This document shows positions 30,747-41,810 of a DNA stretch of 64,000 bases, piece after piece. The translations under genes were made by a program, and so were the position numbers. Under the pieces are notes generated by a model. That model did no database searches. It saw only the letters and a program-made list of their open reading frames with translations, and had not been told where the DNA came from. The stretch spans positions 1,240,001-1,304,000 of the forward strand of contig NZ_CP045417.1 in assembly GCF_009363755.1 (NCBI RefSeq), given 5' to 3'. The DNA is from Halomonas sp. THAF5a (lineage in GTDB: Bacteria; Pseudomonadota; Gammaproteobacteria; Pseudomonadales; Halomonadaceae). The stretch's first letter is position 1. Every line of letters begins with the position of its first letter.

Positions 30747-32372
30747 TCATGTCTGTTCCGACTCTGCCAAGCGCCGCCGCTGCTGCCAGCGGGCATGGGC
30801 CTCTTCGGAGTAGGTGCGCGACGGCGTTCGCTCCATGCCGGCCCCCGCCGTGCCCAGGCTCACCAGGCGCAGCAGAGAGGCCGTCGCCAGGATGACGATC
30901 AGCAGCGCCGGAAAGCCCCCCAGGTTCGATAGCATCTTGATGCCCTCCACCCCGACGAAACTGGTCATGATCCAGGCCACGGTGCCGATCGTGATGCCCC
31001 ACAGCACCTTGAGCGGGAGTCGACGCGCGGCATCATCATCGTCGCCGTCGCCGGCCAGCGCCGCCTGACTGCCGTTGCTGCAGAGCTGACTGATCGCTTC
31101 GGTGTTGGAGTCGGCGGCCGTCACGTAGGACAGGAAGGCAATCGCCAGGAAGGCTGCGGCGCTGAGGCCGCCCAGGGGGAGTTCGTCGAGGAGTGCGTAG
31201 ACCATGGCGCCCGGGCCATTTTCCTGGAGTAGCGCTTGCATGGTCCCGCCCGCGGCCAGGTCCAGGTGCAACATGCTGCCGCTGGTGACCGAGACATAGG
31301 CAATGGCGAACAGTGCGGGGGCCACCAGGTTGATCAGCATGAACTGGCGTACCGTATAGCCTCGCGAGATTCGGCCGAGGAAGAGCGCCGTGATCGGGGC
31401 CCACGCCATCCAGTTGGCCCAGTAGAAGACGCTCCAGCTCTTCGGCCAGGGATCGTCGGCCAGGGCGCCGGTGAACAGGCTCTTTTCCAGGAACTGTCCG
31501 ACATAGGCACCGCTGGCCTCCACGCCGTAGCCAAGGATGTCACGCGTCGGGCCAAACAGGAAGATGAAGGCCATGAAGACAAAGAAGGCGCGCGTATTGA
31601 GGGCCGAGAGTGCGGCGATGCCGCGCTGCAGGCCGCTGGCGGCCGAGGCGGTGAACATCGCCACGATCGCCAGGGTCACGATGCCCAGCGCCAGCGGCCC
31701 GGTGCCGGTGCCGAGGAAACGGTCGACGCCGCCGGCCAGGGTCATGACGCCGGTGCCCAGCGACGAAGCCATGCCGCAGACCAGCGCAAACAGGGCTAGG
31801 GCATCCAGCAACCGTCCCGGGCGGCCGATGAGGCGGTCACCCAGGATGGGTGTGAACAACGAACCCAGCGAGAAGGGCTTGCCCATGTTGTAGTGGGCGA
31901 TGGCGAACATCACGGCGGGCACGGTGTAGATGGCATAGGGAGTGAAGGACCAGTGCAGGAACATGGTCGACAGGGAGAAGCGTGCCGCATCCAGGCTGTT
32001 GGCCGCGATATCGAGTGACGCCGGGGGGGAATGCAGATGATAGAGCGGCTCGGCGGTCGACCAGAACATGATGCCCACCGCCACGGTGGTGCACAGGGTG
32101 ATCGAAAACCAGCGCCATGCCGAGAGCATCGGTCGGGCGTTTTCACCGCCGATGCGGGTGCGGCCCAAGGGTGACAGGAAGACGATCAGGCAGGTCAGGA
32201 CCATGGCCAGTGAGGTCAGGGAAAACAGCCAGCCGACATTCTCGAGAATGGCGGTATTGAGCCCTCCCGTCACGTCGAGGAAGCTTTCCAGATCGATCAT
32301 GCTGGCGCCCACCGCCAGCATCAGCAGGATAAAGGGGGGCCAGAAGACCAGTGGTCGCATCTGATGGAACAT
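30747..32372 (-). CDS. BCCT-family carrier (second)
   Basis: A 541-residue BCCT transporter. SWSVFYWANWMAWAPITALFL and GRISRGYTVRQF form the family signature, and FWSTAEPLYHLHSPP resembles Na+- or H+-coupled members. It differs clearly from the DddT-like carrier at 25889. It is the last gene of the ALDH/iron-ADH/enolase operon and presumably imports its substrate, likely a quaternary amine or a sulfonium or carboxylate osmolyte. AAGGAG lies five bases before the ATG at 32372; a longer frame extends to 32459. Confidence 0.88.
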   Translation of the reverse strand: MFHQMRPLVFWPPFILLMLAVGASMIDLESFLDVTGGLNTAILENVGWLFSLTSLAMVLTCLIVFLSPLGRTRIGGENARPMLSAWRWFSITLCTTVAVGIMFWSTAEPLYHLHSPPASLDIAANSLDAARFSLSTMFLHWSFTPYAIYTVPAVMFAIAHYNMGKPFSLGSLFTPILGDRLIGRPGRLLDALALFALVCGMASSLGTGVMTLAGGVDRFLGTGTGPLALGIVTLAIVAMFTASAASGLQRGIAALSALNTRAFFVFMAFIFLFGPTRDILGYGVEASGAYVGQFLEKSLFTGALADDPWPKSWSVFYWANWMAWAPITALFLGRISRGYTVRQFMLINLVAPALFAIAYVSVTSGSMLHLDLAAGGTMQALLQENGPGAMVYALLDELPLGGLSAAAFLAIAFLSYVTAADSNTEAISQLCSNGSQAALAGDGDDDDAARRLPLKVLWGITIGTVAWIMTSFVGVEGIKMLSNLGGFPALLIVILATASLLRLVSLGTAGAGMERTPSRTYSEEAHARWQQRRRLAESEQT

Positions 32373-32427
32373 AGCGACTCCTTTTTTGTAGGTGGACGTG
32401 GTGGCGGGGCAAGAGGCCCCTAGCAGG

Positions 32428-32443
32428 CTGCCCTCCAGGGCAG
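32428..32443. other. hairpin upstream of the second BCCT gene
   Basis: CTGCCCT-CC-AGGGCAG is a perfect inverted repeat in the 158-base gap between the enolase-superfamily gene and the BCCT gene. CTCCAGGGCAGTCGC here and CTGGAGGGCAGTCGC at about 32466 are near copies. It may modulate expression of the carrier relative to the enzymes. Confidence 0.35.
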
Positions 32444-32530
32444 TCGCCGCGTGGGCCAATGCTGCACTGGAGGGCAGTCGCTTCCGTCGGAAAACACAGG
32501 CAAAGGGGCCGTGCCGACTACTTTGATGGG

Positions 32531-33721
32531 TTATTGATAGGTGGCCTGGTCGGCACGTGTGGCGGCCAGGCGCTCCTCATCCAGCTCAAGGCCGAGACCC
32601 GGCGCCTCCGACAGGGTCAGCCAGCCCTCGCCATCCGCCAGAAGGGGCTTAGACAGCGGGAAGTCACGCTTCTCGGGCGTCCATTCGGGCGGGTCGAGCG
32701 GGTACTCCAGGTAGGGCGCGCCCTCGCTCCCGACGGCACCGGCGGTCAGGTGCAGGTTGGCGATCACCCCGATGCCATTGCCCCAGGTATGCGGCGTGAA
32801 GAGCTTGCCGGCGTCGACGATCTCGCGGGCCAGACGTGCCAGTCCCAGCATGCCTACCGAACAGACGGCGTCGGGCTGATAGACGTCCAGGCAGCCCTGG
32901 CGCAGCATTTCCTGGAACTCGTAGGGCTCTCGCGTCATCTCGCCGCCGGCGATCCTCAGGGATGTCGCCTCGGCGAGCCTTGCCATGCCGGCATAGTCGC
33001 CCCGATACAGCGGCTCCTCCATCCAGTAGACCCGCTGGCGCTCCAGCTCGCGAGCCACCTCCAGCGCCTGGTCGAACTGCCAGGGCGTCTTGACGTCCCA
33101 GGGCATCCGCCAGCCCTGGTTGCAGTCCACCATCAGTTCCAGGTCGTCGCCGACGGCGCGGCGCACGGCGCCGAGCACGGCCAGGTCATCCTCCAGGCGA
33201 GGGCGACCGAAGCGCAGCTTCAAGGCCGGGATGCCGGCCTCACGGACTTGCTCGGCCAGGGCCACTACTTCCTCTAGGGGGCGATGGGTGCCACTGGAGG
33301 CATAGGCGCGCAGGCGGTTCGAGACGCCGCCCATCAGGCGCCAGACCGGGGTCTCGAGGATCTTGCCGGCGAGATCCCACAGGGCGACCTCGAGCGGCCA
33401 GCAGCGCCCGGCATGAAAGCCGATGTTGTCGATCACGCCGGCATGGCGCTCCAGATCCAGTGGATCCTCGCCGATGAACAGGTGACGAAAGTCATCGAAG
33501 CCGTACATGACATCGCCAGATCCGATCCCTTCGCGTCCTTCGCTGTCGATCACCCGAACCAGGGTCGCCGGGAAGCGGCGGCGCGGCTGGCTGTCCCAAG
33601 CGGCAGGGAAGGGCGGGTCGAGCTCGAACTGGTGGTGGCTGATCTCGATACGGGCGATGCGGCTCGACTGGCCCGGGGCCGTGAAGAGGGGGACACGGGC
33701 GTCGTTCAATGCGGCTGTCAT
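32531..33721 (-). CDS. enolase-superfamily enzyme, mandelate racemase/muconate cycloisomerase type
   Basis: A 396-residue MR/MLE-type protein. The barrel shows LKLRFG (a KxR base motif), metal ligands in [14 protein letters not shown] and AGGEM, an Asp in YQPDAV and the catalytic His in [10 protein letters not shown] KxR plus His-Asp arrangement fits mandelate-racemase-like acid dehydratases or epimerases. The substrate is not assignable. Its ATG overlaps the TGA of the iron-ADH gene (ATGA, 33718-33721), so the two are translationally coupled. The BCCT neighbour suggests a betaine-type or hydroxy-acid substrate. Confidence 0.85.
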
Positions 33722-34920
33722 GCGACGGCCCCCTCTGTCGTCGTCCGGGTGTCCAGCAGGCGCTGCCGGCGGCGCTGAAAGGTAGCCACGGTGAGCTCGG
33801 CCAGCGGCTGCCAGTCATCCTCCTCGGGGATGCGCGCGGCATTGTTGGCCATGGGAGCGTTTTCCTCGGCCTGCATCACCTCGGCCAGCGTCGCGGCGTC
33901 CATCTCCAGGTCCAAGAAGGGAACGAGGGCCTGGTCGAAGGCGCTGGCATCGGCCAGCTCGGTGAACAGCCCGGGCAGGGCATCCGCGCTGCTGCCCGGC
34001 ATCAAGGCATGGGCGCTCGGGTCGAAGATGGCCTCATGGCCCTCGATCGACCAGGCAAGCGAGGCCTCGACGGCGAGCGCCACGGCCACGCCATGAGGCA
34101 GGTGGTAGAGGCTGCCGAGGGCATGGCCGATGTTGTGCGCGATCCCGGTACCGCCATTGTCGATGGCCATGCCGGCGAGGCAGGCGGCTTCCTGCATCTG
34201 CTGGCGAGCCTCGAGGTTTGCGGGGGCATGCACCGCCTCTGACAGGGAGGCCCCGATCAGGCGAATCGCGGCCAGCGCCTGACTCTCGATCAGGTGATTG
34301 CGGTTGCGGCCGGTGGTGGCTTCCAGGGCATGCACGAAGGCATCCAGCCCCGTGGCCGCGGTCAAGGCAGCCGGAAGCGAGCGCGTGAGTTCGGGGTCGA
34401 GCAGCACGGCCTCGGGGAGTAGCTCGTCGCCCCAGGCCCAGAGCTTGCGCCCGGTGCCGTCGGCCAGGATGGAGGTCCGAGTGACCTCGCTGCCGGTGCC
34501 CGATGTGGTCGGGATCATCACCGCTGGCGCCTTGCCGACCCAGGGGCTGCGGCCCAGCAGATAGGTCTCCATCTTTCCGGGGCTGGCGGCCAGCGCTGCC
34601 ACCAGCTTGGCGATGTCCAGGGCGGTACCGCCGCCGATGCCGAGTACCAGGGGGGCATCGAGCTCGCGCACCATCTGCGCCGCCTGGTCGACGGTGGCCA
34701 CGCTGGGCTCTCCGGCGGGGGCGATGAAGCGGATGACCTCGGCATCCTGCTCGAGCTCGGCCAGGTAGGGGGCCAGCATGCCGCTGGCCTCGAGTCCGGC
34801 ATCGGTGATCAGCAGATAGCGCTCGGCACCCTGTTGCCGACGCAGTTCCGGCAGTCGTGCCATACAACCCGGACCCGCGATGACGTGGGCCTGGCGACCG
34901 TTCTCGTAATCTTGCTGCAT
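33718..34920 (-). CDS. iron-containing alcohol dehydrogenase
   Basis: A 400-residue group III alcohol dehydrogenase. NAD binding is indicated by [14 protein letters not shown] and [11 protein letters not shown]; the metal ligands lie in [10 protein letters not shown] (Asp, His), [16 protein letters not shown] (His) and further. Members oxidise or reduce small alcohols, hydroxy acids and maleylacetate. It likely makes an aldehyde or ketone for the ALDH encoded just upstream. GAGGAG is six bases before the ATG at 34920, only 10 bases after the ALDH gene. Confidence 0.88.
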
Positions 34921-34930
34921 GCGGGGCTCC

Positions 34931-36424
34931 TCAGATCTCGATCCAGGTGGTCTTGAGCTCGGTGTACTTGTCGAAGGCATGCAGGGACTTGTCGCGACCC
35001 TGTCCCGACTGCTTGAAGCCCCCGAAGGGCGCATTGATGGAGGTGTGGTCGTAGCAGTTGACCCAGACGGTGCCGGCCCTCAGTGACCGGGCGGCACGAT
35101 GACCATTGCTCAGGTTGTCGGTCCAGATGGCAGCACCGAGGCCGTAGTCGGTGTCATTGGCGATGGCGATAGCCTCGTCCAGCTCATCGACGGTGAGTAC
35201 CACCAGCACCGGGCCGAAGATCTCCTCGCGGGCGATGCGCATGTCGTTACTGACCTCGTCAAGCACCGCCGGCGTGAGGTAGTAGCCGCCGCTATCACGG
35301 CGCACCCTTTCGCCACCGAAGCGCAGCTTGGCACCCTCGCGCTGGCCTTCGGCCAGGTAGTGCTGGACCTTCTCCAGCTGGGGCTCCTCGATCATGGCGC
35401 CGATCTGGTTGTCGGGGTCGAGGGGGTCGCCTGGCTCAAGCTTCCTGGCCCAGCTTTCCAGTCGCTCCAGCAGGGCGTCCTTGATCTGGCGATCGACGAT
35501 CAGCCGGGTACCGGCATGGCAGGTCTGACCCTGGTTGTACCAGACGCCATAGGCCACATACATGGCGATCTTGTCCAGGTCCTCGACGTCTCGGGTGACG
35601 ATGTGCGGGCTCTTGCCGCCACACTCGAGGCCGATCCGCTTCATGTTGGATTCCGCCGAATACGCCAGGAAGCGCTTGCCGATCTCGGTGGACCCGGTGA
35701 AGCCCACCGCATCGATGTCCATGTGTCGCCCCAGGGCTTCACCGGCCTCATGGCCCAGGCCGGTGATCACCTGAAAGGCGCCGGCGGGAATGCCCGCCTC
35801 ACTGGCCAGCGCGGCGACCCGCAGGGTGGCGAGGTTGGATTGTTCGGCGGGCTTGAGGATCAGCGAGTTGCCGGCGCCCAGGGCGGGACCGATCTTCCAG
35901 CCGGCGATGATCAGCGGGTAGTTCCAGGGCACCACGGCGGCGACCACGCCCACCGGCTCACGATCGATCATGCAGACGCTGGAAGGCCCGTTGGGGGCGG
36001 TCTCGCCGTAGAGCTTGTCGAGGGCTTCGGCATAGTAGCGCAGGCCACCGACCAGCCCCGGCACATCGACGCTGGTGGTCTGGGAGATCGGCTTGCCCGT
36101 TTCCAGGGTCTCGAGCAGGGCGATCTCGTCCGCGTGGCGCTCGATCAACTGCGCCCAGGCGAGCATCCTGGCCTTGCGCTCGGCCGGCGGCAGGTCACGC
36201 CAGGTACCGGCGTTGAACGTCTTGCGGGCGTTGGCGACGGCGCGGTCGACGTCCTGGGCCTGGCAGGCGGCTACGCGGGTGAGAGGCTCGCCGGTGGCCG
36301 GGTTCTCGGCCGTGAAGGTGGCACCATCGGCGGCATCGCAGAACTCACCGCCCAGATAGGCCTGGTGGGGCAGGGGCAGGGTGCGGGCGAGGTGTTGCCA
36401 ATCGGTCAAGGAGCGCTCGCTCAT
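34931..36424 (-). CDS. aldehyde dehydrogenase, PuuC/betaine-aldehyde type
   Basis: A 497-residue NAD(P)+-dependent aldehyde dehydrogenase. The active-site glutamate lies in LECGGKSP and the catalytic cysteine in NQGQTCHAGTRL; VVPWNYPLIIAGWKIGPAL is the cofactor region. It resembles PuuC/DhaS enzymes, which oxidise omega-amino or short aldehydes. First gene of a four-gene minus-strand operon (ALDH, iron-ADH, enolase-type enzyme, BCCT carrier), divergent from the LysR at 36596. The start at 36424 follows AGGGAG. Confidence 0.88.
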   Translation of the reverse strand: MSERSLTDWQHLARTLPLPHQAYLGGEFCDAADGATFTAENPATGEPLTRVAACQAQDVDRAVANARKTFNAGTWRDLPPAERKARMLAWAQLIERHADEIALLETLETGKPISQTTSVDVPGLVGGLRYYAEALDKLYGETAPNGPSSVCMIDREPVGVVAAVVPWNYPLIIAGWKIGPALGAGNSLILKPAEQSNLATLRVAALASEAGIPAGAFQVITGLGHEAGEALGRHMDIDAVGFTGSTEIGKRFLAYSAESNMKRIGLECGGKSPHIVTRDVEDLDKIAMYVAYGVWYNQGQTCHAGTRLIVDRQIKDALLERLESWARKLEPGDPLDPDNQIGAMIEEPQLEKVQHYLAEGQREGAKLRFGGERVRRDSGGYYLTPAVLDEVSNDMRIAREEIFGPVLVVLTVDELDEAIAIANDTDYGLGAAIWTDNLSNGHRAARSLRAGTVWVNCYDHTSINAPFGGFKQSGQGRDKSLHAFDKYTELKTTWIEI

Positions 36425-36528
36425 CGTGTCGTTCTCCCTAGGGTATGGACAGCCGCCGCATCCTAGGGGGGCTGCGGTAGCGAAACAAACGACCATTATG
36501 CAGAGATGGTATTCATAAAAGTCATCCA

Positions 36529-36541
36529 GGATGCGGTATCC
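36529..36541. promoter_or_regulatory. possible regulator dyad
   Basis: GGAT-GCGGT-ATCC lies in the 171-base divergent promoter between the ALDH and LysR genes, 55 bases before the LysR start. Plausible LysR site, weak support. Confidence 0.3.
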
Positions 36542-36595
36542 TCCCGAAAATCACGTTATATTTTCATTTGGCACGAGTTTTTTGAGGGGGGAGAC

Positions 36596-37513
36596 ATGCA
36601 GCGATCGCTGCCACCATTGAATGCGCTCAAGGCCTTCGAGGCCGCCGCCCAGTGTTTGAGCTTCACCCAGGCAGCGACGCGCCTCTGCGTCACGCAGAGC
36701 GCCGTGAGCCGCCAGGTCAAGTTGCTGGAGGAACAGCTGGGGGTGGCACTGTTCGATCGCAGCGGTGGCCAATTGAGGCTCACCGCCGCGGGCCAGCGTC
36801 TGTTGCCGGTATTGCGCCAATCCTTTGATCGGATTGCCTGGACGGTGGGCGGCTTGGGCGATCAGCAGGCGCTGTCACGGCTGAAAATCAACGTGCCGCC
36901 GACCTTCGCCAGCCGCTGGCTGGTGCCCCGGCTGGGCCGTCTCAATGCACTGCATCCCTCACTCGAGCTGTCGATTACCACCCGCTTCGAGGATGACCTG
37001 CTGGATCGCAACGAACTGGATGGGGCGATCCGTTTCGGTGCGGGCGAGTGGCCGGACATCGATGCCGAGCTGCTGCTGCAGGAAACGCATGTCGCGGTCT
37101 GCGCTCCCCATCTGCTCGAGGGGCGGCGCGGCCGTGAAGTGGATCTGACCCGACACACCCTGTTGCATGTGCTGCGCGACGATGACCGGTTCCATACCTG
37201 GGAGCACTGGCTGCAAGCGGCGGGCATCGACGGCGTGGAGACAGGTCGAGGCCTGGCCTTCGATGTGCTCGAGCTCGCCATTCAGGCAGCCATCAATGGG
37301 GTCGGGGTGACGGTGGCCGATCGGCACATGATTGGCCGTGAGCTGATGCGGGGCGACCTGGTCCAGTTGCTGGATGTGGAGGTCACCGGCCATCAATCTT
37401 ATTGGCTGGTGACGCGCCATGAGCAGCAGGAGTCCACCAACATGGCGCTGTTTCGTCGCTGGCTGCGGCAGGAGGTCAGTGACCCGCCGTCCGATTTCTC
37501 CGAACAGGCCTGA
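36596..37513 (+). CDS. LysR-family regulator, GcvA-like
   Basis: A 305-residue LysR protein starting MQRSLPPLNALKAFEAAAQ, the GcvA-type N-terminus, with SFTQAATRLCVTQSAVSRQV as recognition helix. A G-rich site (GAGGGGGGAG) stands before the ATG at 36596. Divergent from the ALDH operon, which it probably controls. The convergent LysR at 37529 belongs to the next module. Confidence 0.9.
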   Translation: MQRSLPPLNALKAFEAAAQCLSFTQAATRLCVTQSAVSRQVKLLEEQLGVALFDRSGGQLRLTAAGQRLLPVLRQSFDRIAWTVGGLGDQQALSRLKINVPPTFASRWLVPRLGRLNALHPSLELSITTRFEDDLLDRNELDGAIRFGAGEWPDIDAELLLQETHVAVCAPHLLEGRRGREVDLTRHTLLHVLRDDDRFHTWEHWLQAAGIDGVETGRGLAFDVLELAIQAAINGVGVTVADRHMIGRELMRGDLVQLLDVEVTGHQSYWLVTRHEQQESTNMALFRRWLRQEVSDPPSDFSEQA

Positions 37514-37528
37514 GGCGAAAGCCGACGA

Positions 37529-38443
37529 TCAGGGATCGCCGGCATTGGCGCACGAGTCATCCATGGTGAGCAGTTCCCTGATCAGCGCAATCAGGTCGTC
37601 CCCGGCAGGGTGCTGGAAGCTCGGCGAGCGGTGCAGTTCCAGCTGCGCCGGCGGCAAGGGAGGCAGGCCCAGTGGCTCATCGAGGACCTGCCAGTCGACC
37701 GGCAGGGTGCGGCGGTCGGCCACGGTCACGGCGTTGCGCTGGTTGACGGCCATGCGCAGCCCGGTCGGACTCTGGCTGGTGTATTGCAGCGACCACTGCC
37801 GCCCCTGGCGAGTCAGGCTATCCAGGGCGCGCTGACGGTAGGGGCAGTGATCCGGAAACAGCGCCAGGGGAAGCGGTGACCCTGCGTCGTGCTGGAAGTC
37901 ACGATGCGCGGTCCAGACCAGGGACTCGGTGCCCAGGACGTCCCCGTTGCCATGGTTGGCATGACGCACCGTCAGTGCCAGGTCGAGCTCTCCGCTTTCC
38001 AGGGCCTCGATCAGTTCGCTGGACATGCGGCAGTGGATATGGGGCCGGATGCGCGGGTGGCGCTGAGCGAAGCGGTCCAATAGCCGTGGGAGCCAGGCCT
38101 CGGCGTAATTCTCGGGCAGCCCGAACCGAATCACTCCCTCCCGATCACCATGGCCAAGCGCACTGATGGCCTCTCGCTGCAGCTGCAGCAACCGACGCGC
38201 ATAGACCAGGAAGGTCTCGCCGTCCGAGGTCAGGTGCAACTGCCGACTGGTGCGATGCAGCAGTGGAACGCCCACTCGCTCCTCGAGGGTACGAATGCGC
38301 TGGCTGATGGTCGACTGCGTCTTGTGCAGCTGGCGAGCCGCCGCCGTGAATCCCTCGTTCTCGATCACCGCCACGAAGGCGCTGAGCAACTCGGTGTCGA
38401 GGATCGGCAGGTTCTGGCCATCGTCTTTGTCGATGGAATGCAT
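37529..38443 (-). CDS. LysR-family transcriptional regulator
   Basis: A 304-residue LysR protein starting MHSIDKDDGQNLPILDTELL; helix-turn-helix in GFTAAARQLHKTQSTISQRI with LLHRTSRQLHLTSDG. I use the ATG at 38443; a GTG at 38482 has no Shine-Dalgarno site. It is divergent from the oxygenase gene at 38554 and probably regulates the oxygenase, M24 and binding-protein genes. Confidence 0.88.
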   Translation of the reverse strand: MHSIDKDDGQNLPILDTELLSAFVAVIENEGFTAAARQLHKTQSTISQRIRTLEERVGVPLLHRTSRQLHLTSDGETFLVYARRLLQLQREAISALGHGDREGVIRFGLPENYAEAWLPRLLDRFAQRHPRIRPHIHCRMSSELIEALESGELDLALTVRHANHGNGDVLGTESLVWTAHRDFQHDAGSPLPLALFPDHCPYRQRALDSLTRQGRQWSLQYTSQSPTGLRMAVNQRNAVTVADRRTLPVDWQVLDEPLGLPPLPPAQLELHRSPSFQHPAGDDLIALIRELLTMDDSCANAGDP

Positions 38444-38553
38444 CGGAACGAATCGTTTCCTCGATGATTGAAGTTTCCCCACTATGCCGCTGAATCCAAG
38501 ACGAGACCAGCGTCGACTGGTCGACCCTTTCCCCGTGACCGTGGAGGACCCCG

Positions 38554-39444
38554 ATGCTCACCGCACAGCAATTGGCCGATGCCGAGCGCCATGATCTGAC
38601 CGACCTGGTCGATAGCGAACGCTATCCCCTCGACCGTCCCGACGATCCCGCCCTGCTATCGGTCATCGCCAAGGCGCGCGCCGACCTGGATCGAGAGGGC
38701 TGTGCGGTGCTGCGTGGCTTCATGCGTGAGGATCGCCTGGCTCAGATGCGCGGGGAGTGTCAGGAGCTGGCCGAGAAGAGTTTCTACAATACCCGGGAAG
38801 TCAACGCCTACTTCACCGCGGATGATCCGACGCTTCCCGAGCAGGATCCCCGCCGCCTGTTCATGACCCGGACCAGCGGTTTCGTGACCCGCGACATGAT
38901 CACGGCCGATCGCATCATGCAACGGCTGTATGTCTCGCCGGGCATGAAGTCCCTGGTGGCGCGCTGCCTCGGCGAGGAGCAGGTCTACGAATATGCCGAC
39001 CCCTATGCCGGGCTGGTACTCAACGTGCTGCCCGAGGGTACGGAACAGCCGTGGCATTACGACACCAATGAATTCATCGTCACCATGATGACCCAGGCAC
39101 CGGAGGCCGGCGGCAGCTTCGAGTACTGCCCGGACATTCGGACGCCGCAGGATGAAAACTATGCCGGCGTGGGGGCGGTGATTCGCGATGAGGACCGCGA
39201 GGGCGTGCGTCGGCTGGACCTGCAGCCCGGGGATCTTCAGCTGTTCAAGGGGCGCTTCAGCCTGCATCGGGTGACTCGCGTCGAGGGGGCCACCCCGAGA
39301 TTGACGGCGATCTTCGCCTACTCCCAGTCACCGGGTGTGGTCGGTCGGCTCGAGCGCACGCGCCAGCTGTATGGCCGGGTCTCGGAGCTCCACATCCAGG
39401 CCGAGCAGGATCGCGCCGAACGCGTCGATGGCCTGCTTGACTGA
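38554..39444 (+). CDS. Fe(II)/2-oxoglutarate oxygenase, HalD/BesD-like family with HxD site
   Basis: A 296-residue double-stranded beta-helix oxygenase. The iron ligands appear to be His168, Asp170 (WHYDTNEF) and His238 (FSLHRVTRV), with Arg249 as a likely 2-oxoglutarate contact. The block around FIVTMMTQAPEAGGSFEYCP and DENYAG recalls the HalD/BesD amino-acid halogenase family. Those halogenases have Gly in place of the Asp (HxG); HxD here predicts a hydroxylase. The substrate may be an amino-acid or betaine-like compound. GGAGG lies six bases before the ATG. First gene of a module with the M24 protein and a betaine-binding protein. Confidence 0.82.
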   Translation: MLTAQQLADAERHDLTDLVDSERYPLDRPDDPALLSVIAKARADLDREGCAVLRGFMREDRLAQMRGECQELAEKSFYNTREVNAYFTADDPTLPEQDPRRLFMTRTSGFVTRDMITADRIMQRLYVSPGMKSLVARCLGEEQVYEYADPYAGLVLNVLPEGTEQPWHYDTNEFIVTMMTQAPEAGGSFEYCPDIRTPQDENYAGVGAVIRDEDREGVRRLDLQPGDLQLFKGRFSLHRVTRVEGATPRLTAIFAYSQSPGVVGRLERTRQLYGRVSELHIQAEQDRAERVDGLLD

Positions 39445-39479
39445 CCCTTTTCCCAACGTATCGCTTTGGAGCACCGCTG

Positions 39480-40730
39480 ATGAACATGGATCTAGCCGCA
39501 CTGGGCATCCTGGCCCCCACCCATCGCCCCGAGGACTGCGAGCCAACGCGGGAGGAGATCCCGCAGATCCTGTGCGATCGACTCGGGCGCGTGAGGGCAC
39601 AGCTCAAGGCGCGCGATATCTCTGCCGCCGTGCTGTTCGACCCGGCGCACGTGCGCTATGCCACCGGCTCGCGCAACATGCAGGTCTACAGCTCCCGCAA
39701 CCCGGCGCGCTATGCCTTCGTGCCGGCCGAAGGGCCGGTGGTGCTGTTCGAGTTTTCCGGGTGTGAACACCTGGCCTCTCATCTTCCCACCATCGACGAG
39801 ATCCGGCCGGCCAAGGCCATCTCGTACTACTTCAACGAACGAAACACCCATGCCGTGACGGAGGCCTGGGCCGACGAAATCGACGATTTGATCCAGCGCC
39901 AGTGCGGTGGTGGCGGCAAGGTAGCCCTGGAGAGCGCCACCTCCCAGGCGGCCTTCGCCCTCAAGGAGCGCGGCTACCGAGTGCTGGATGCCCAGGAACC
40001 CCTCGAACAGGCGCGTGCCTACAAGGTGCCCAACGAGATCAAGATGATTCGTTCCTCACTGCGCGCGGTCGAGGATGGGGTGCGGCAACTGGAGGCGGCT
40101 ATCCGCCCCGGTGTGACCGAGAACGAAGCCTGGTCAAAGCTTCATCAGCACATCATCGCCACCGACGCGGACTTCGTCGAGACACGTTTGATGAACTCGG
40201 GGCCCAGGACCAACCCCTGGTTCCAGGAGTGTTCCGACCGTCGCATTCAAGCCGGGGAGCTGGTGGCGCTGGATACCGATGTGGTCGGACGCTATGGCTA
40301 CTATGCCGACTTCTCGCGCACCTTCCTCTGTGGTCGTGATCAACCGACCCAGGCGCAGAAGGGTCTGTATCGAATGGCCTATGACCAGATTCGGACCAAC
40401 ATGGCCAACCTGAAGCCGGGGGTCAGCTTCAAGGAGTACGCCGAGCGCGCCTGGCAGATTCCCCCCGCCTACAAGTCACGCCGCTACTTCGCCCTGGCAC
40501 ATGGCGTCGGCATGAACGGGGAATATCCCTATATCGTGCATCGTGAAGATATCGACGATAAGGGGTACGACGGCATCATCGAGCCGGGCATGACCCTCTG
40601 TGTCGAGAGCTTCATCGGCCATGAAGATGGCGGGGAAGGGGTAAAGCTCGAGGAGCAGCTCTATATCCGGGAAGACGGCCAGGTAGAGCTGTTGTCGGAT
40701 TATCCTTTCGATGCTCGACTGCTGGGATAA
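39480..40730 (+). CDS. M24-family metallohydrolase-fold protein, DddP-like but lacking the DddP catalytic Asp
   Basis: A 416-residue pita-bread-fold protein. It closely recalls the DMSP lyase DddP: VRYATGSRNMQ, ETRLMNSGPRTNPWFQEC and IRTNMANLKPGV all have counterparts there. The six DddP metal ligands are matched by Asp265, Asp267, Asp277, His341, Glu376 and Glu391. The DddP catalytic Asp377 is Gly347 here (HGVGMNGEYP). DMSP cleavage is therefore unlikely by that mechanism; another C-N, C-S or amide substrate is more likely. GGAG is eight bases before the ATG. Follows the oxygenase gene by 35 bases. Confidence 0.82.
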   Translation: MNMDLAALGILAPTHRPEDCEPTREEIPQILCDRLGRVRAQLKARDISAAVLFDPAHVRYATGSRNMQVYSSRNPARYAFVPAEGPVVLFEFSGCEHLASHLPTIDEIRPAKAISYYFNERNTHAVTEAWADEIDDLIQRQCGGGGKVALESATSQAAFALKERGYRVLDAQEPLEQARAYKVPNEIKMIRSSLRAVEDGVRQLEAAIRPGVTENEAWSKLHQHIIATDADFVETRLMNSGPRTNPWFQECSDRRIQAGELVALDTDVVGRYGYYADFSRTFLCGRDQPTQAQKGLYRMAYDQIRTNMANLKPGVSFKEYAERAWQIPPAYKSRRYFALAHGVGMNGEYPYIVHREDIDDKGYDGIIEPGMTLCVESFIGHEDGGEGVKLEEQLYIREDGQVELLSDYPFDARLLG

Positions 40731-40873
40731 TCGCCCCAAGATTGCGCCATAGCTCATGAGATGCTGCATTCCTTTAACTCATGCAGGTTATGAGAAATGC
40801 GCCGCTTTGATGGAAGTGATCTCATGCTAGTCTTGGCTCATCGCTATTCCAATAATCAGATGAAGGAGATTCC

Positions 40874-41737
40874 ATGAAGAAGTTATCCGCGACTCTCTTG
40901 GCGCTCGGTGTCATGTCTGCCGGCACGGTGTCCGCAGCCAGTGACAAGTCACTGACGATTGGTACCAATAACTGGGCCGAGAATATCGCCGTGGCCAACA
41001 TGTGGAAGATCCTCCTCGAGGAGGAACATGGCTATGACGTCGAGTTGTCGGATGTTGGCAAGAGCGTGCTCTATAGTGGCCTCGCCAGCGGAGACTTCGA
41101 TCTTTCTCTTGAAATCTGGCTGCCGACCACGGATGCGCCGTTCCTGGAGCCTTATCGTGATAGGATCGATGTCCACGATATCTGGTATCGGGGAACCGGC
41201 CTGGGCTTGGTCGTACCCAGCTTCGCCGATATCGACAGCATTCCCGAGCTTCAGCAGCAGGCGGAAAGCTATCAGTATCAGGGGCGCCCCGCCATTCTTG
41301 GCATCGATCCAGGATCGGCGATTGCCGGACTGACGGAAGATGCCATCGATGCGTACGAGCTGCCCATGAATCAGGTCAACAGTTCCGGGCCGGCGATGAT
41401 GGCGGCTTTAGATAGTGCTTATGAGCGTAATGAACCTGTCGTTGTCACGCTGTGGAGCCCGCATTGGGCTTTTGCCGAGTACGATCTCAAGTACCTCGAG
41501 GATCCGCAGGGCATCTATGGCGAGAACGAGGATATCTATTGGATGGCTCGTCCTGGGCTGGATGAGGAAGATCCTTGGCTGACGTCACTGCTCAACGCCT
41601 GGAATATGGACGATGATAGCCTTGGTTCCCTGATGGCGCGTATCGAGGAAGTGGGTGATCCTGAAGAGGGTGCCAAGGAGTGGATCGACGAAAATCGTGA
41701 GATAATCGATGGCTGGTTTGCCGAGGCGTCGAGCTAG
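40874..41737 (+). CDS. glycine betaine/proline-type ABC substrate-binding protein (OpuAC/ProX family)
   Basis: A 287-residue periplasmic protein with a signal peptide (MKKLSATLLALGVMSAGTVSA, cleaved near residue 22). The mature part has the OpuAC fold: TIGTNNWAENIAVANMW, VGKSVLYSGLASGDFDLSLE and VVTLWSPHWAFAEYDLKYLE supply aromatic residues of a quaternary-amine cage. No permease or ATPase gene is adjacent, so it must share a transporter encoded elsewhere or act as an orphan. AAGGAG is five bases before the ATG. It lies 143 bases after the M24 gene, so it may have its own promoter. Confidence 0.88.
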   Translation: MKKLSATLLALGVMSAGTVSAASDKSLTIGTNNWAENIAVANMWKILLEEEHGYDVELSDVGKSVLYSGLASGDFDLSLEIWLPTTDAPFLEPYRDRIDVHDIWYRGTGLGLVVPSFADIDSIPELQQQAESYQYQGRPAILGIDPGSAIAGLTEDAIDAYELPMNQVNSSGPAMMAALDSAYERNEPVVVTLWSPHWAFAEYDLKYLEDPQGIYGENEDIYWMARPGLDEEDPWLTSLLNAWNMDDDSLGSLMARIEEVGDPEEGAKEWIDENREIIDGWFAEASS

Positions 41738-41770: not shown

Positions 41771-41810
41771 TCGAGCCGGATGAATTTTTTCATCCGGCTC
41801 GAATTATCTT
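41771..41810 (+). terminator. terminator after the betaine-binding protein gene
   Basis: A perfect 14-base-pair stem (41771-41784 with 41789-41802) closed by TTTT, followed by ATTATCTT. It can also serve the convergent TetR gene. Confidence 0.85.

What the first reader, a model, noticed from the sequence alone, without database searches (positions are those of the whole stretch)
38554..41737. Undescribed osmolyte module: BesD-like oxygenase, DddP-like M24 protein, orphan betaine-binding protein
A LysR divergent from three co-directional genes joins an Fe/2OG oxygenase, an M24-fold protein related to a DMSP lyase but without its catalytic Asp, and a quaternary-amine binding protein. I know no pathway with this set. 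Hydroxylation followed by metal-dependent cleavage of a betaine-like compound imported by the binding protein is a reasonable model. It sits 8 kb from the DMSP cluster.
Basis: inference. Interest (0 to 1): 0.75.

Follow-up and report, generated by a model that had tools for sequence, protein, structure and literature searches.

The report
Oxygenase–metalloenzyme pair for betaine breakdown
A small, widely shared bacterial gene set joins an iron oxygenase to a relative of a marine DMSP-splitting enzyme, often with a betaine-binding protein; it probably breaks down a still unknown quaternary-amine nutrient, and gives a testable clue to where that DMSP enzyme came from.

Summary
M24 directly follows OXY in 80 of 80 fetched relatives and behind 93 of 99 OXY matches in 121 same-family genomes. 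A relative of the window's binding protein is present in 36 of 80.

OXY carries the hydroxylase triad HxD…H in 30 of 30 aligned rows, so it is probably no halogenase despite database names. Other M24s of the family sit beside MttB-type methyltransferases with DMGDH-like flavoproteins, or a stachydrine-demethylase-like Rieske enzyme. On the M24 tree an MttB clade and an OXY clade are sisters.

Substrate and M24 reaction are unknown. 53 of 80 sampled M24 loci lack these partners, and two loci hold OXY and MttB together. My literature searches listed no description.

The parts
37529..38482 (-). LysR-type regulator, divergent from the operon; an in-frame ATG at 38443 is a likelier start (read by eye)
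   Evidence: LysR_substrate 87.7 bits, HTH_1 76.6 bits. A relative (39-91% identity) lies upstream of OXY on the opposite strand in 77 of 80 loci; L082 and L087 have none, L088 only a weak partial match
38554..39444 (+). HalD/BesD-fold Fe(II)/2-oxoglutarate oxygenase (OXY), hydroxylase triad H168-x-D170...H238
   Evidence: triad invariant in 15 of 15; 30 of 30
39480..40730 (+). DddP-family M24 metal enzyme; DddP ligands kept as D265, D267, D277, H341, E376, E391; Y336 (DddP Tyr366) kept; G347 in place of DddP Asp377; R65 and Y70 where DddP has Ser/Thr and Trp95
40874..41737 (+). OpuAC-type periplasmic binding protein with signal-peptide-like N-terminus (by eye) and Trp residues W34, W82, W194, W198 plus H197 of the betaine cage; no permease or ATPase gene beside it
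   Evidence: (alignment to OpuA/OpuAC)
41771..41802 (+). terminator-like hairpin after the binding-protein gene
   Evidence: 1 found, 1.8 expected by shuffles; weak
30747..36496 (-). possible second operon of the same pathway: BCCT transporter, MR/MLE enolase-superfamily enzyme, Fe-alcohol dehydrogenase, aldehyde dehydrogenase
   Evidence: MR/MLE and Fe-ADH both lie near OXY-M24 in 18 of 80 loci, all Halomonas and near kin; aldehyde dehydrogenase, Fe-ADH and MR/MLE with OXY-M24 in another gene order in G888/L208
36506..37513 (+). GcvA-type LysR regulator of that second operon (inferred)
   Evidence: NF008352 GcvA, 292.6 bits, over its cut-off of 288

Best explanation
The operon is a catabolic module for an imported quaternary-ammonium betaine. 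SHOWN: OXY and M24 form a conserved pair; OXY has the HalD/BesD fold with a hydroxylase-type triad; M24 belongs to the DddP family with its six-ligand metal site but an altered catalytic pocket; the binding protein has the OpuAC aromatic cage. INFERRED, moderate: OXY does the job that MttB+DMGDH or a Stc2-type Rieske enzyme does beside other members of the same M24 family, that is, removal of an N-methyl group (here oxidatively, with loss of formaldehyde from N-CH2OH); it would be another chemical class of betaine N-demethylase. INFERRED, weaker: M24 acts on the betaine itself, not on a hydroxylated product. As in DddP, the carboxylate would bind the metal pair and Tyr336 would take the alpha proton in place of Asp377, leading to C-N cleavage. 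The binding protein (orphan here, next to ABC permease and ATPase genes in Paraburkholderia) would bring in the betaine through a shared permease, and LysR would induce the operon.
For: Pairing: 80 of 80 loci; 93 of 99 OXY matches, and OXY in 59 of 60 M24-bearing genomes, of 121 family genomes. Second pair in the window's own genome, LysR | OXY2 - M24-2 - ALDH. Partner exchange: M24-2 is 64-66% identical to the M24 of S. meliloti pSymA, whose neighbours are an MttB-family methyltransferase, a DMGDH-like flavoprotein, an OpuA-type ABC transporter, MR/MLE and Ldh; transporter genes near the OXY2 pair match the S. meliloti ones at 39-70%. On a 115-row M24 tree the MttB clade (4 rows, one without MttB in view) and the OXY clade (7 rows) are sisters, each at SH-aLRT 99; the OXY label needs 6 changes, 24.6 on average when shuffled. 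Rhizobium M24s sit with a Rieske enzyme, which in one record scores 342 bits to 4qup and 3vca (stachydrine demethylase Stc2 by recall). Among 80 sampled M24 loci the commonest neighbour clusters are MttB (13) and DMGDH-like (11), with OXY (8) fourth after a LysR group (9); 27 of 80 have OXY, MttB, Rieske or DMGDH within 7 kb against 5 of 40 control stretches, Fisher p 0.016. Active site: R65 in 27 of 27 rows with G347 but 1 of 14 with Asp there.
Against: 53 of 80 sampled M24 loci show none of the four demethylase-type partners within 7 kb (42 of the 64 loci of 14 kb or more), so the family is broader than this pathway. In L208 and L173 an MttB gene and an OXY-M24 pair stand in one stretch, so the two may be successive or parallel steps, not substitutes. 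The oxygenase-free M24-3 operon occurs in family genomes that also hold OXY elsewhere, so it does not prove that M24 works without OXY. Amide-type genes also recur in other lineages: isochorismatase, a carbon-nitrogen hydrolase, hydantoinase A/B; these suit hydrolysis as well as lyase chemistry. No substrate, product or activity was seen. In 25 of 26 Pseudomonas loci no relative of the window's binding protein was found; MFS or SBP_bac_5 transporter genes stand near. OXY could hydroxylate carbon rather than N-methyl.
Confidence: 0.47

Rival explanations
1. One reading: OXY hydroxylates a carbon of the betaine skeleton and M24 then cleaves the hydroxylated product by elimination or hydrolysis.
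For: M24 directly follows OXY in 80 of 80 loci and 93 of 99 matches; a DddP-like metal site suits elimination from a carboxylate; 59 of 60 M24 genomes in the family have OXY.
Against: M24-3 forms an operon with a binding protein about 70-73% identical to the window's and no hydroxylase; MttB+DMGDH clusters install no hydroxyl.
Confidence: 0.23
2. M24 is a hydrolase (creatinase-, ectoine-hydrolase- or prolidase-like) that splits an amide, amidine or peptide-like conjugate and frees a methylated amine, which OXY, MttB or Rieske enzymes then demethylate.
For: M24 fold; amide-type neighbours isochorismatase, carbon-nitrogen hydrolase and hydantoinase A/B; the Foldseek list includes prolidase, creatinase and DoeA further down.
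Against: The nearest relatives by sequence and fold are DddP, far ahead of hydrolases; the residue after a conserved Pro is Trp in 44 of 44 rows, where M24 peptidases carry a catalytic His (recall).
Confidence: 0.22
3. OXY is a halogenase or free-lysine hydroxylase, and M24 an unrelated neighbour.
For: NCBI and UniRef name many relatives 'HalD/BesD family halogenase'; best fold hits are HalD, HalB, BesD and a BesD-like lysine hydroxylase.
Against: HxD...H triad in 30 of 30; only 13-17% identity to these structures and a weak profile match, E 3.8e-4; constant pairing with M24.
Confidence: 0.05

Closest known systems
DddP DMSP lyase (RdDddP 4b28, RlDddP 4rzy)
   Same: Best sequence and fold match; all six metal ligands and Tyr366 kept
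   Different: Asp377 is Gly, Trp95 is Tyr, a Ser/Thr position is Arg; 325.6 bits against a family cut-off of 600; different operon
HalD/HalB/BesD amino-acid halogenases and their hydroxylase homologue (7u6h, 7u6i, 6nie, 7jsd)
   Same: Fold and Pfam HalD family
   Different: Asp present in the triad, so hydroxylase type; the residue after the triad Asp is Thr in the window (mostly Thr, else Ser, Asn, Gly or Arg in 30 rows), where HalB has Asp after the triad Gly
Rhizobial stachydrine / hydroxyproline-betaine-like clusters (Rieske enzyme, 4-hydroxyproline epimerase or proline racemase, OpuA)
   Same: Contain a homologous M24 gene beside a betaine-demethylase-like enzyme and OpuA transporter
   Different: Rieske enzyme in place of OXY; that M24 keeps the Asp
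S. meliloti pSymA MttB-DMGDH-M24-isochorismatase-OpuA-MR/MLE-Ldh cluster
   Same: M24 64-66% identical to the second M24 of the window's genome; related transporter genes
   Different: Corrinoid-type methyltransferase and flavoprotein in place of the Fe/2OG enzyme
Cbc/OpuA systems with orphan binding proteins
   Same: Orphan OpuAC protein; the genome holds 10 OpuAC matches, and one place has two binding proteins, a permease and an ATPase gene. The title of a paper on a transporter that recruits several binding proteins for quaternary ammonium compounds was seen in part in a reference list
   Different: Ligand unknown; gene sits in a catabolic operon

Membership tests
DddP DMSP lyase | passes the curated NCBIfam NF043017 cut-off (600 bits) | tested here: not met
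   325.6 bits
DddP DMSP lyase | six metal-binding residues | tested here: met
   D265, D267, D277, H341, E376, E391; 43 of 44 family rows
DddP DMSP lyase | catalytic Asp377 (favoured base in RdDddP, Discussion section read) | tested here: not met
   G347 in the window
DddP DMSP lyase | cleaves DMSP to DMS and acrylate | not testable with these tools
   needs enzyme
HalD/BesD radical halogenase | HalD fold | tested here: met
   Pfam 50.9 bits, cut-off 26; Foldseek E 1.8e-14 to HalD
HalD/BesD radical halogenase | facial triad lacks the carboxylate (halide site) | tested here: not met
   H-D-H in 30 of 30 rows
M24 peptidase (aminopeptidase P, prolidase) | catalytic His of the peptidase active site (recalled) | tested here: inconclusive
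   Trp at the position read as equivalent in 44 of 44 rows; no alignment with peptidases was made for this point
Betaine-binding OpuAC protein | OpuAC domain over cut-off, aromatic cage | tested here: met
   218.1 bits, cut-off 21.2; Trp residues shared with OpuA in the alignment
Betaine N-demethylase (functional class) | removes N-methyl from a quaternary amine | not testable with these tools
   inferred from partner exchange only

The most novel reading that the evidence does not exclude
HalD-fold Fe/2OG enzymes are an unrecognised class of betaine N-demethylases, alongside the Rieske and corrinoid (MttB) classes, built into interchangeable modules around a large M24 family of betaine-acting metal enzymes. 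DddP, the DMSP lyase, would be one twig of that family, re-tuned between nitrogen and sulfur betaines by a few active-site changes (positions 65, 70 and 347 here).
Probability: 0.33. Interest if true: 0.78.

Novelty: new variant of a known kind. Interest (0 to 1): 0.58.

Why it matters
Betaines are major nitrogen and carbon currencies in the sea, in saline soils and around plant roots (general knowledge), and the genes for many are unknown. This pair is found in Halomonas, Chromohalobacter, Pseudomonas, Burkholderia, Paraburkholderia, Marinomonas and others, and 562 relatives of OXY were confirmed in one capped scan, so one assay would inform many genomes where the genes are now called 'halogenase' and 'Xaa-Pro peptidase'. 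It also gives a concrete route to the origin of DddP: several of its relatives sit in nitrogen-betaine gene clusters.

Tried and rejected
Considered and rejected or left open. (1) Halogenase: triad has Asp. (2) Free lysine as OXY substrate: BesD contacts were read in passages of PMC13244439. Only the residue after the triad was compared, and the weak profile match does not allow residue-level transfer; not decided. (3) Link to the DMSP cluster: not conserved within the stretches read. (4) Stachydrine or hydroxyproline betaine as the substrate: suggested by Rhizobium, but the M24 there is a different subclade with Asp kept; no proline-pathway gene was noticed among the annotated neighbours of the window operon, but none was searched for. 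(5) Creatine/N-methylhydantoin chemistry: isochorismatase and hydantoinase neighbours in some lineages; not noticed among the neighbour clusters that I annotated in the 80 window-type loci, not searched for there. (6) A LysR box: regions upstream of OXY of 20 loci were aligned; a GGAA...TTTCC pattern recurs in Halomonas but was not tested. (7) MttB alone or OXY alone against control stretches is not significant (p 0.086 and 0.097); the pooled test is. One control stretch, L227, itself holds an M24 and a distant OXY; dropping it gives p 0.007. (8) Two of the six OXY changes on the M24 tree rest on distant OXY relatives (L193, L211, 31-33%); 15 OXY-labelled rows came from an OXY search, so their label is by selection; the tree is a quick one without bootstrap. 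(9) Papers: the ten searches listed no paper whose title or abstract opening describes this pair. Passages were seen in PMC4108388 (plus its Discussion section), PMC13244439, PMC10187165, PMC5591287, PMC4113996, PMC12478193 and PMC8079746; no whole paper was read.

The 80 M24 loci were picked by hand from 43+79+25 listed places (overlapping), mostly from the top of the lists; those searches scored only 6-7 candidates per genome, so M24 numbers per genome are lower bounds. Sixteen of the 80 are shorter than 14 kb. ORFs in the scripts were called by a simple GC-frame rule, so some genes were missed or too long; counts of OXY, M24, LysR and SBP rest on tblastn.

Full report
What is there. Pfam, NCBIfam, the PDB sequences and two structure predictions agree on their families. 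OXY is a HalD/BesD-fold Fe(II)/2OG enzyme: mean pLDDT 90, best fold hits HalD, HalB and BesD at 13-17% identity. M24 is a DddP relative (260.8 bits to 4b28; TM 0.85 to DddP; model pLDDT 83, with residues 240-249 and 69-73 under 50). The last gene is an OpuAC-type binding protein with the tryptophans of the betaine cage. There is no permease or ATPase beside it. The same genome holds ten OpuAC matches, and one of the places read, around 757-762 kb, has two binding proteins with a permease and an ATPase gene.

Conserved pairing. M24 follows OXY directly on the same strand in 80 of 80. A LysR relative lies upstream on the other strand in 77 of 80. A relative of the window's binding protein (41-91% identity) is found in 36 of 80, not always downstream. 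Another OpuAC-type group stands in 12 further Paraburkholderia-type loci, with permease and ATPase genes near (one representative of each checked). Because those 80 are the nearest relatives, I also searched 121 genomes of the window's own family with both genes. Of 99 OXY matches at E 1e-40 or better, 93 have M24 57-311 bases downstream. Five of the six exceptions are the weakest matches, around 1e-63 to 1e-67. Of 60 genomes with M24, 59 also have OXY.

OXY is of the hydroxylase type. The triad His-x-Asp...His is complete in 30 of 30 rows and 15 of 15 in the first alignment. Halogenases of this fold lack the Asp (recalled; consistent with HalB's His-Trp-Gly-Asp). The name 'HalD/BesD family halogenase' carried by many relatives is therefore misleading.

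M24 is a re-tuned DddP relative. In 44 family rows the six metal ligands are kept in 43, the Pro-Trp pair in 44 and DddP Tyr366 (Y336) in 40. DddP Asp377 is Gly in 27 rows including the window, Asp in 14 and Asn in 3. Position 65 is Arg in 27 of 27 Gly rows, 1 of 14 Asp rows and 0 of 3 Asn rows. Position 70 (DddP Trp95 by the alignment) is Trp in 13 of 14 Asp rows and 1 of 27 Gly rows. The pocket thus changed at three positions together. In the RdDddP paper the authors favour Asp377 as base with Tyr366 as alternative (Discussion section read, PMC4108388). That Trp95 matters is recall.

Other M24s in the same genome. A second pair, LysR | OXY2 - M24-2 - aldehyde dehydrogenase, lies at 2.03 Mb (OXY2 48% to OXY). 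A third, M24-3, lies at 621.6 kb; beside it are a binding protein 71-73% identical to the window's and a divergent LysR, and no oxygenase. The same M24-plus-binding-protein pair stands in L019, on the other strand and 0.7 kb from an OXY-M24-SBP operon. So an M24 of this kind can form its own operon with a binding protein. It does not show that M24 works without OXY, since these genomes hold OXY elsewhere.

Exchange of the partner. In annotated plasmids an M24 of the family stands beside an MttB-type methyltransferase, DMGDH-like flavoprotein, OpuA transporter, MR/MLE and Ldh in S. meliloti and Shinella. Sinorhizobium K101 shows the same order, with the MttB and flavoprotein genes unannotated but found by tblastn in two pieces each. 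It stands beside a Rieske oxygenase, OpuA transporter and 4-hydroxyproline epimerase or proline racemase in three Rhizobium records. The Rieske enzyme of one of them scores 342 bits to 4qup and 3vca (Stc2 by recall), and the S. meliloti MttB protein 340 bits to 4yyc and 328 to a glycine betaine methyltransferase, 9yce. The S. meliloti M24 is 64-66% identical to M24-2 of the window's genome. The tree of 115 M24 rows puts the rhizobial MttB clade and the OXY2 clade as sisters, both SH-aLRT 99, within an 11-row clade at 100; the window's own clade is 14 rows, all with OXY (mostly brought in by the OXY search), at 100 (quick search, no bootstrap). Against simple exchange: in G888 (L208) one 20-kb stretch holds an M24 plus binding protein, aldehyde dehydrogenase, Fe-ADH, MR/MLE, MttB, DMGDH and LysR | OXY-M24, the last two 75% and 79% identical to the window's, and L173 also holds MttB and OXY-M24. 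There the two systems may be successive or parallel steps.

How general. In 80 sampled M24 loci, 27 have OXY, MttB, Rieske or DMGDH within 7 kb, against 5 of 40 control stretches from some of the same genomes (p 0.016). Seventeen have one on the same strand within 400 bases. Fifty-three have none within 7 kb. The family as a whole is thus wider than betaine demethylation, and the association, though the commonest seen, is partial.

How it probably works. Since members of the same M24 family pair with three unrelated demethylase-type chemistries, and N-demethylation is what those chemistries share, OXY most likely removes an N-methyl group (moderate). Since M24 also forms an operon with a binding protein alone, it more likely acts on the betaine itself. 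A DddP-like site suggests carboxylate binding to the metals and alpha-proton removal by Tyr336, then C-N cleavage (weak). Hydrolysis is the main rival, favoured by amide-type neighbours in other lineages. The MR/MLE and Fe-ADH genes next door (operon 30747-36496) recur with OXY-M24 in 18 of 80 loci and in L208, and an MR/MLE 55% identical to the window's lies just upstream of an M24 on the same strand in L177. That operon may carry later or earlier steps.

Verdict. A real, widespread gene pair, not described in any paper that my searches listed, with a good case for betaine catabolism, an open substrate and an open M24 reaction.

Noticed in passing
own genome, L123/L124 (G000:C1:2027181-2032194): Second paralogous module LysR | OXY2 - M24-2 - aldehyde dehydrogenase, with an OpuA-type ABC transporter (39-70% to the S. 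meliloti one) about 11 kb from the dehydrogenase gene and a BCCT transporter near by.
   Followed up: partly
own genome, L125:8677-11940; L019:12878-16105: M24-3 plus OpuAC binding protein in one operon, divergent LysR, no oxygenase in it.
   Followed up: partly
window 30747-37513: BCCT, MR/MLE, Fe-ADH and aldehyde dehydrogenase with a GcvA-type LysR; the MR/MLE is only 22-28% identical to the MR/MLE proteins near M24s in S. meliloti, MPC6, Pseudomonas and P. yeei, but 55-64% to those in L177 and L208.
   Followed up: partly
L257:4664-13182 (Paracoccus yeei plasmid): A gene annotated dddP lies between an alcohol dehydrogenase and an MR/MLE gene, with hydantoinase A/B genes downstream; it may not be a DMSP lyase in this setting.
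   Followed up: no
L171, L200 (genome G490): At least seven family M24 genes in one 2.7-Mb genome (only 7 candidates scored; a control stretch, L227, holds another), four of them in tandem beside an MttB gene.
   Followed up: no
L082, L083, L087: OXY 55-58% identical to the window's but paired with a quite different M24 (45-47%, Asn at position 347). In L087 a fatty-acid-desaturase-like gene and a PhnD-like binding protein lie upstream; matching genes recur near M24 in L134, L181 and L196.
   Followed up: partly
L027-L031, L033-L035, L085, L086 (Chromohalobacter, Salinicola): An extra DIOX_N-type 2OG oxygenase gene after M24 (10 loci; one representative checked); relatives (47-50%) stand near M24, DMGDH and MttB in L177 and L179.
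   Followed up: partly
database names of OXY relatives: Relatives of a hydroxylase-triad protein are named 'HalD/BesD family halogenase' in public records.
   Followed up: partly
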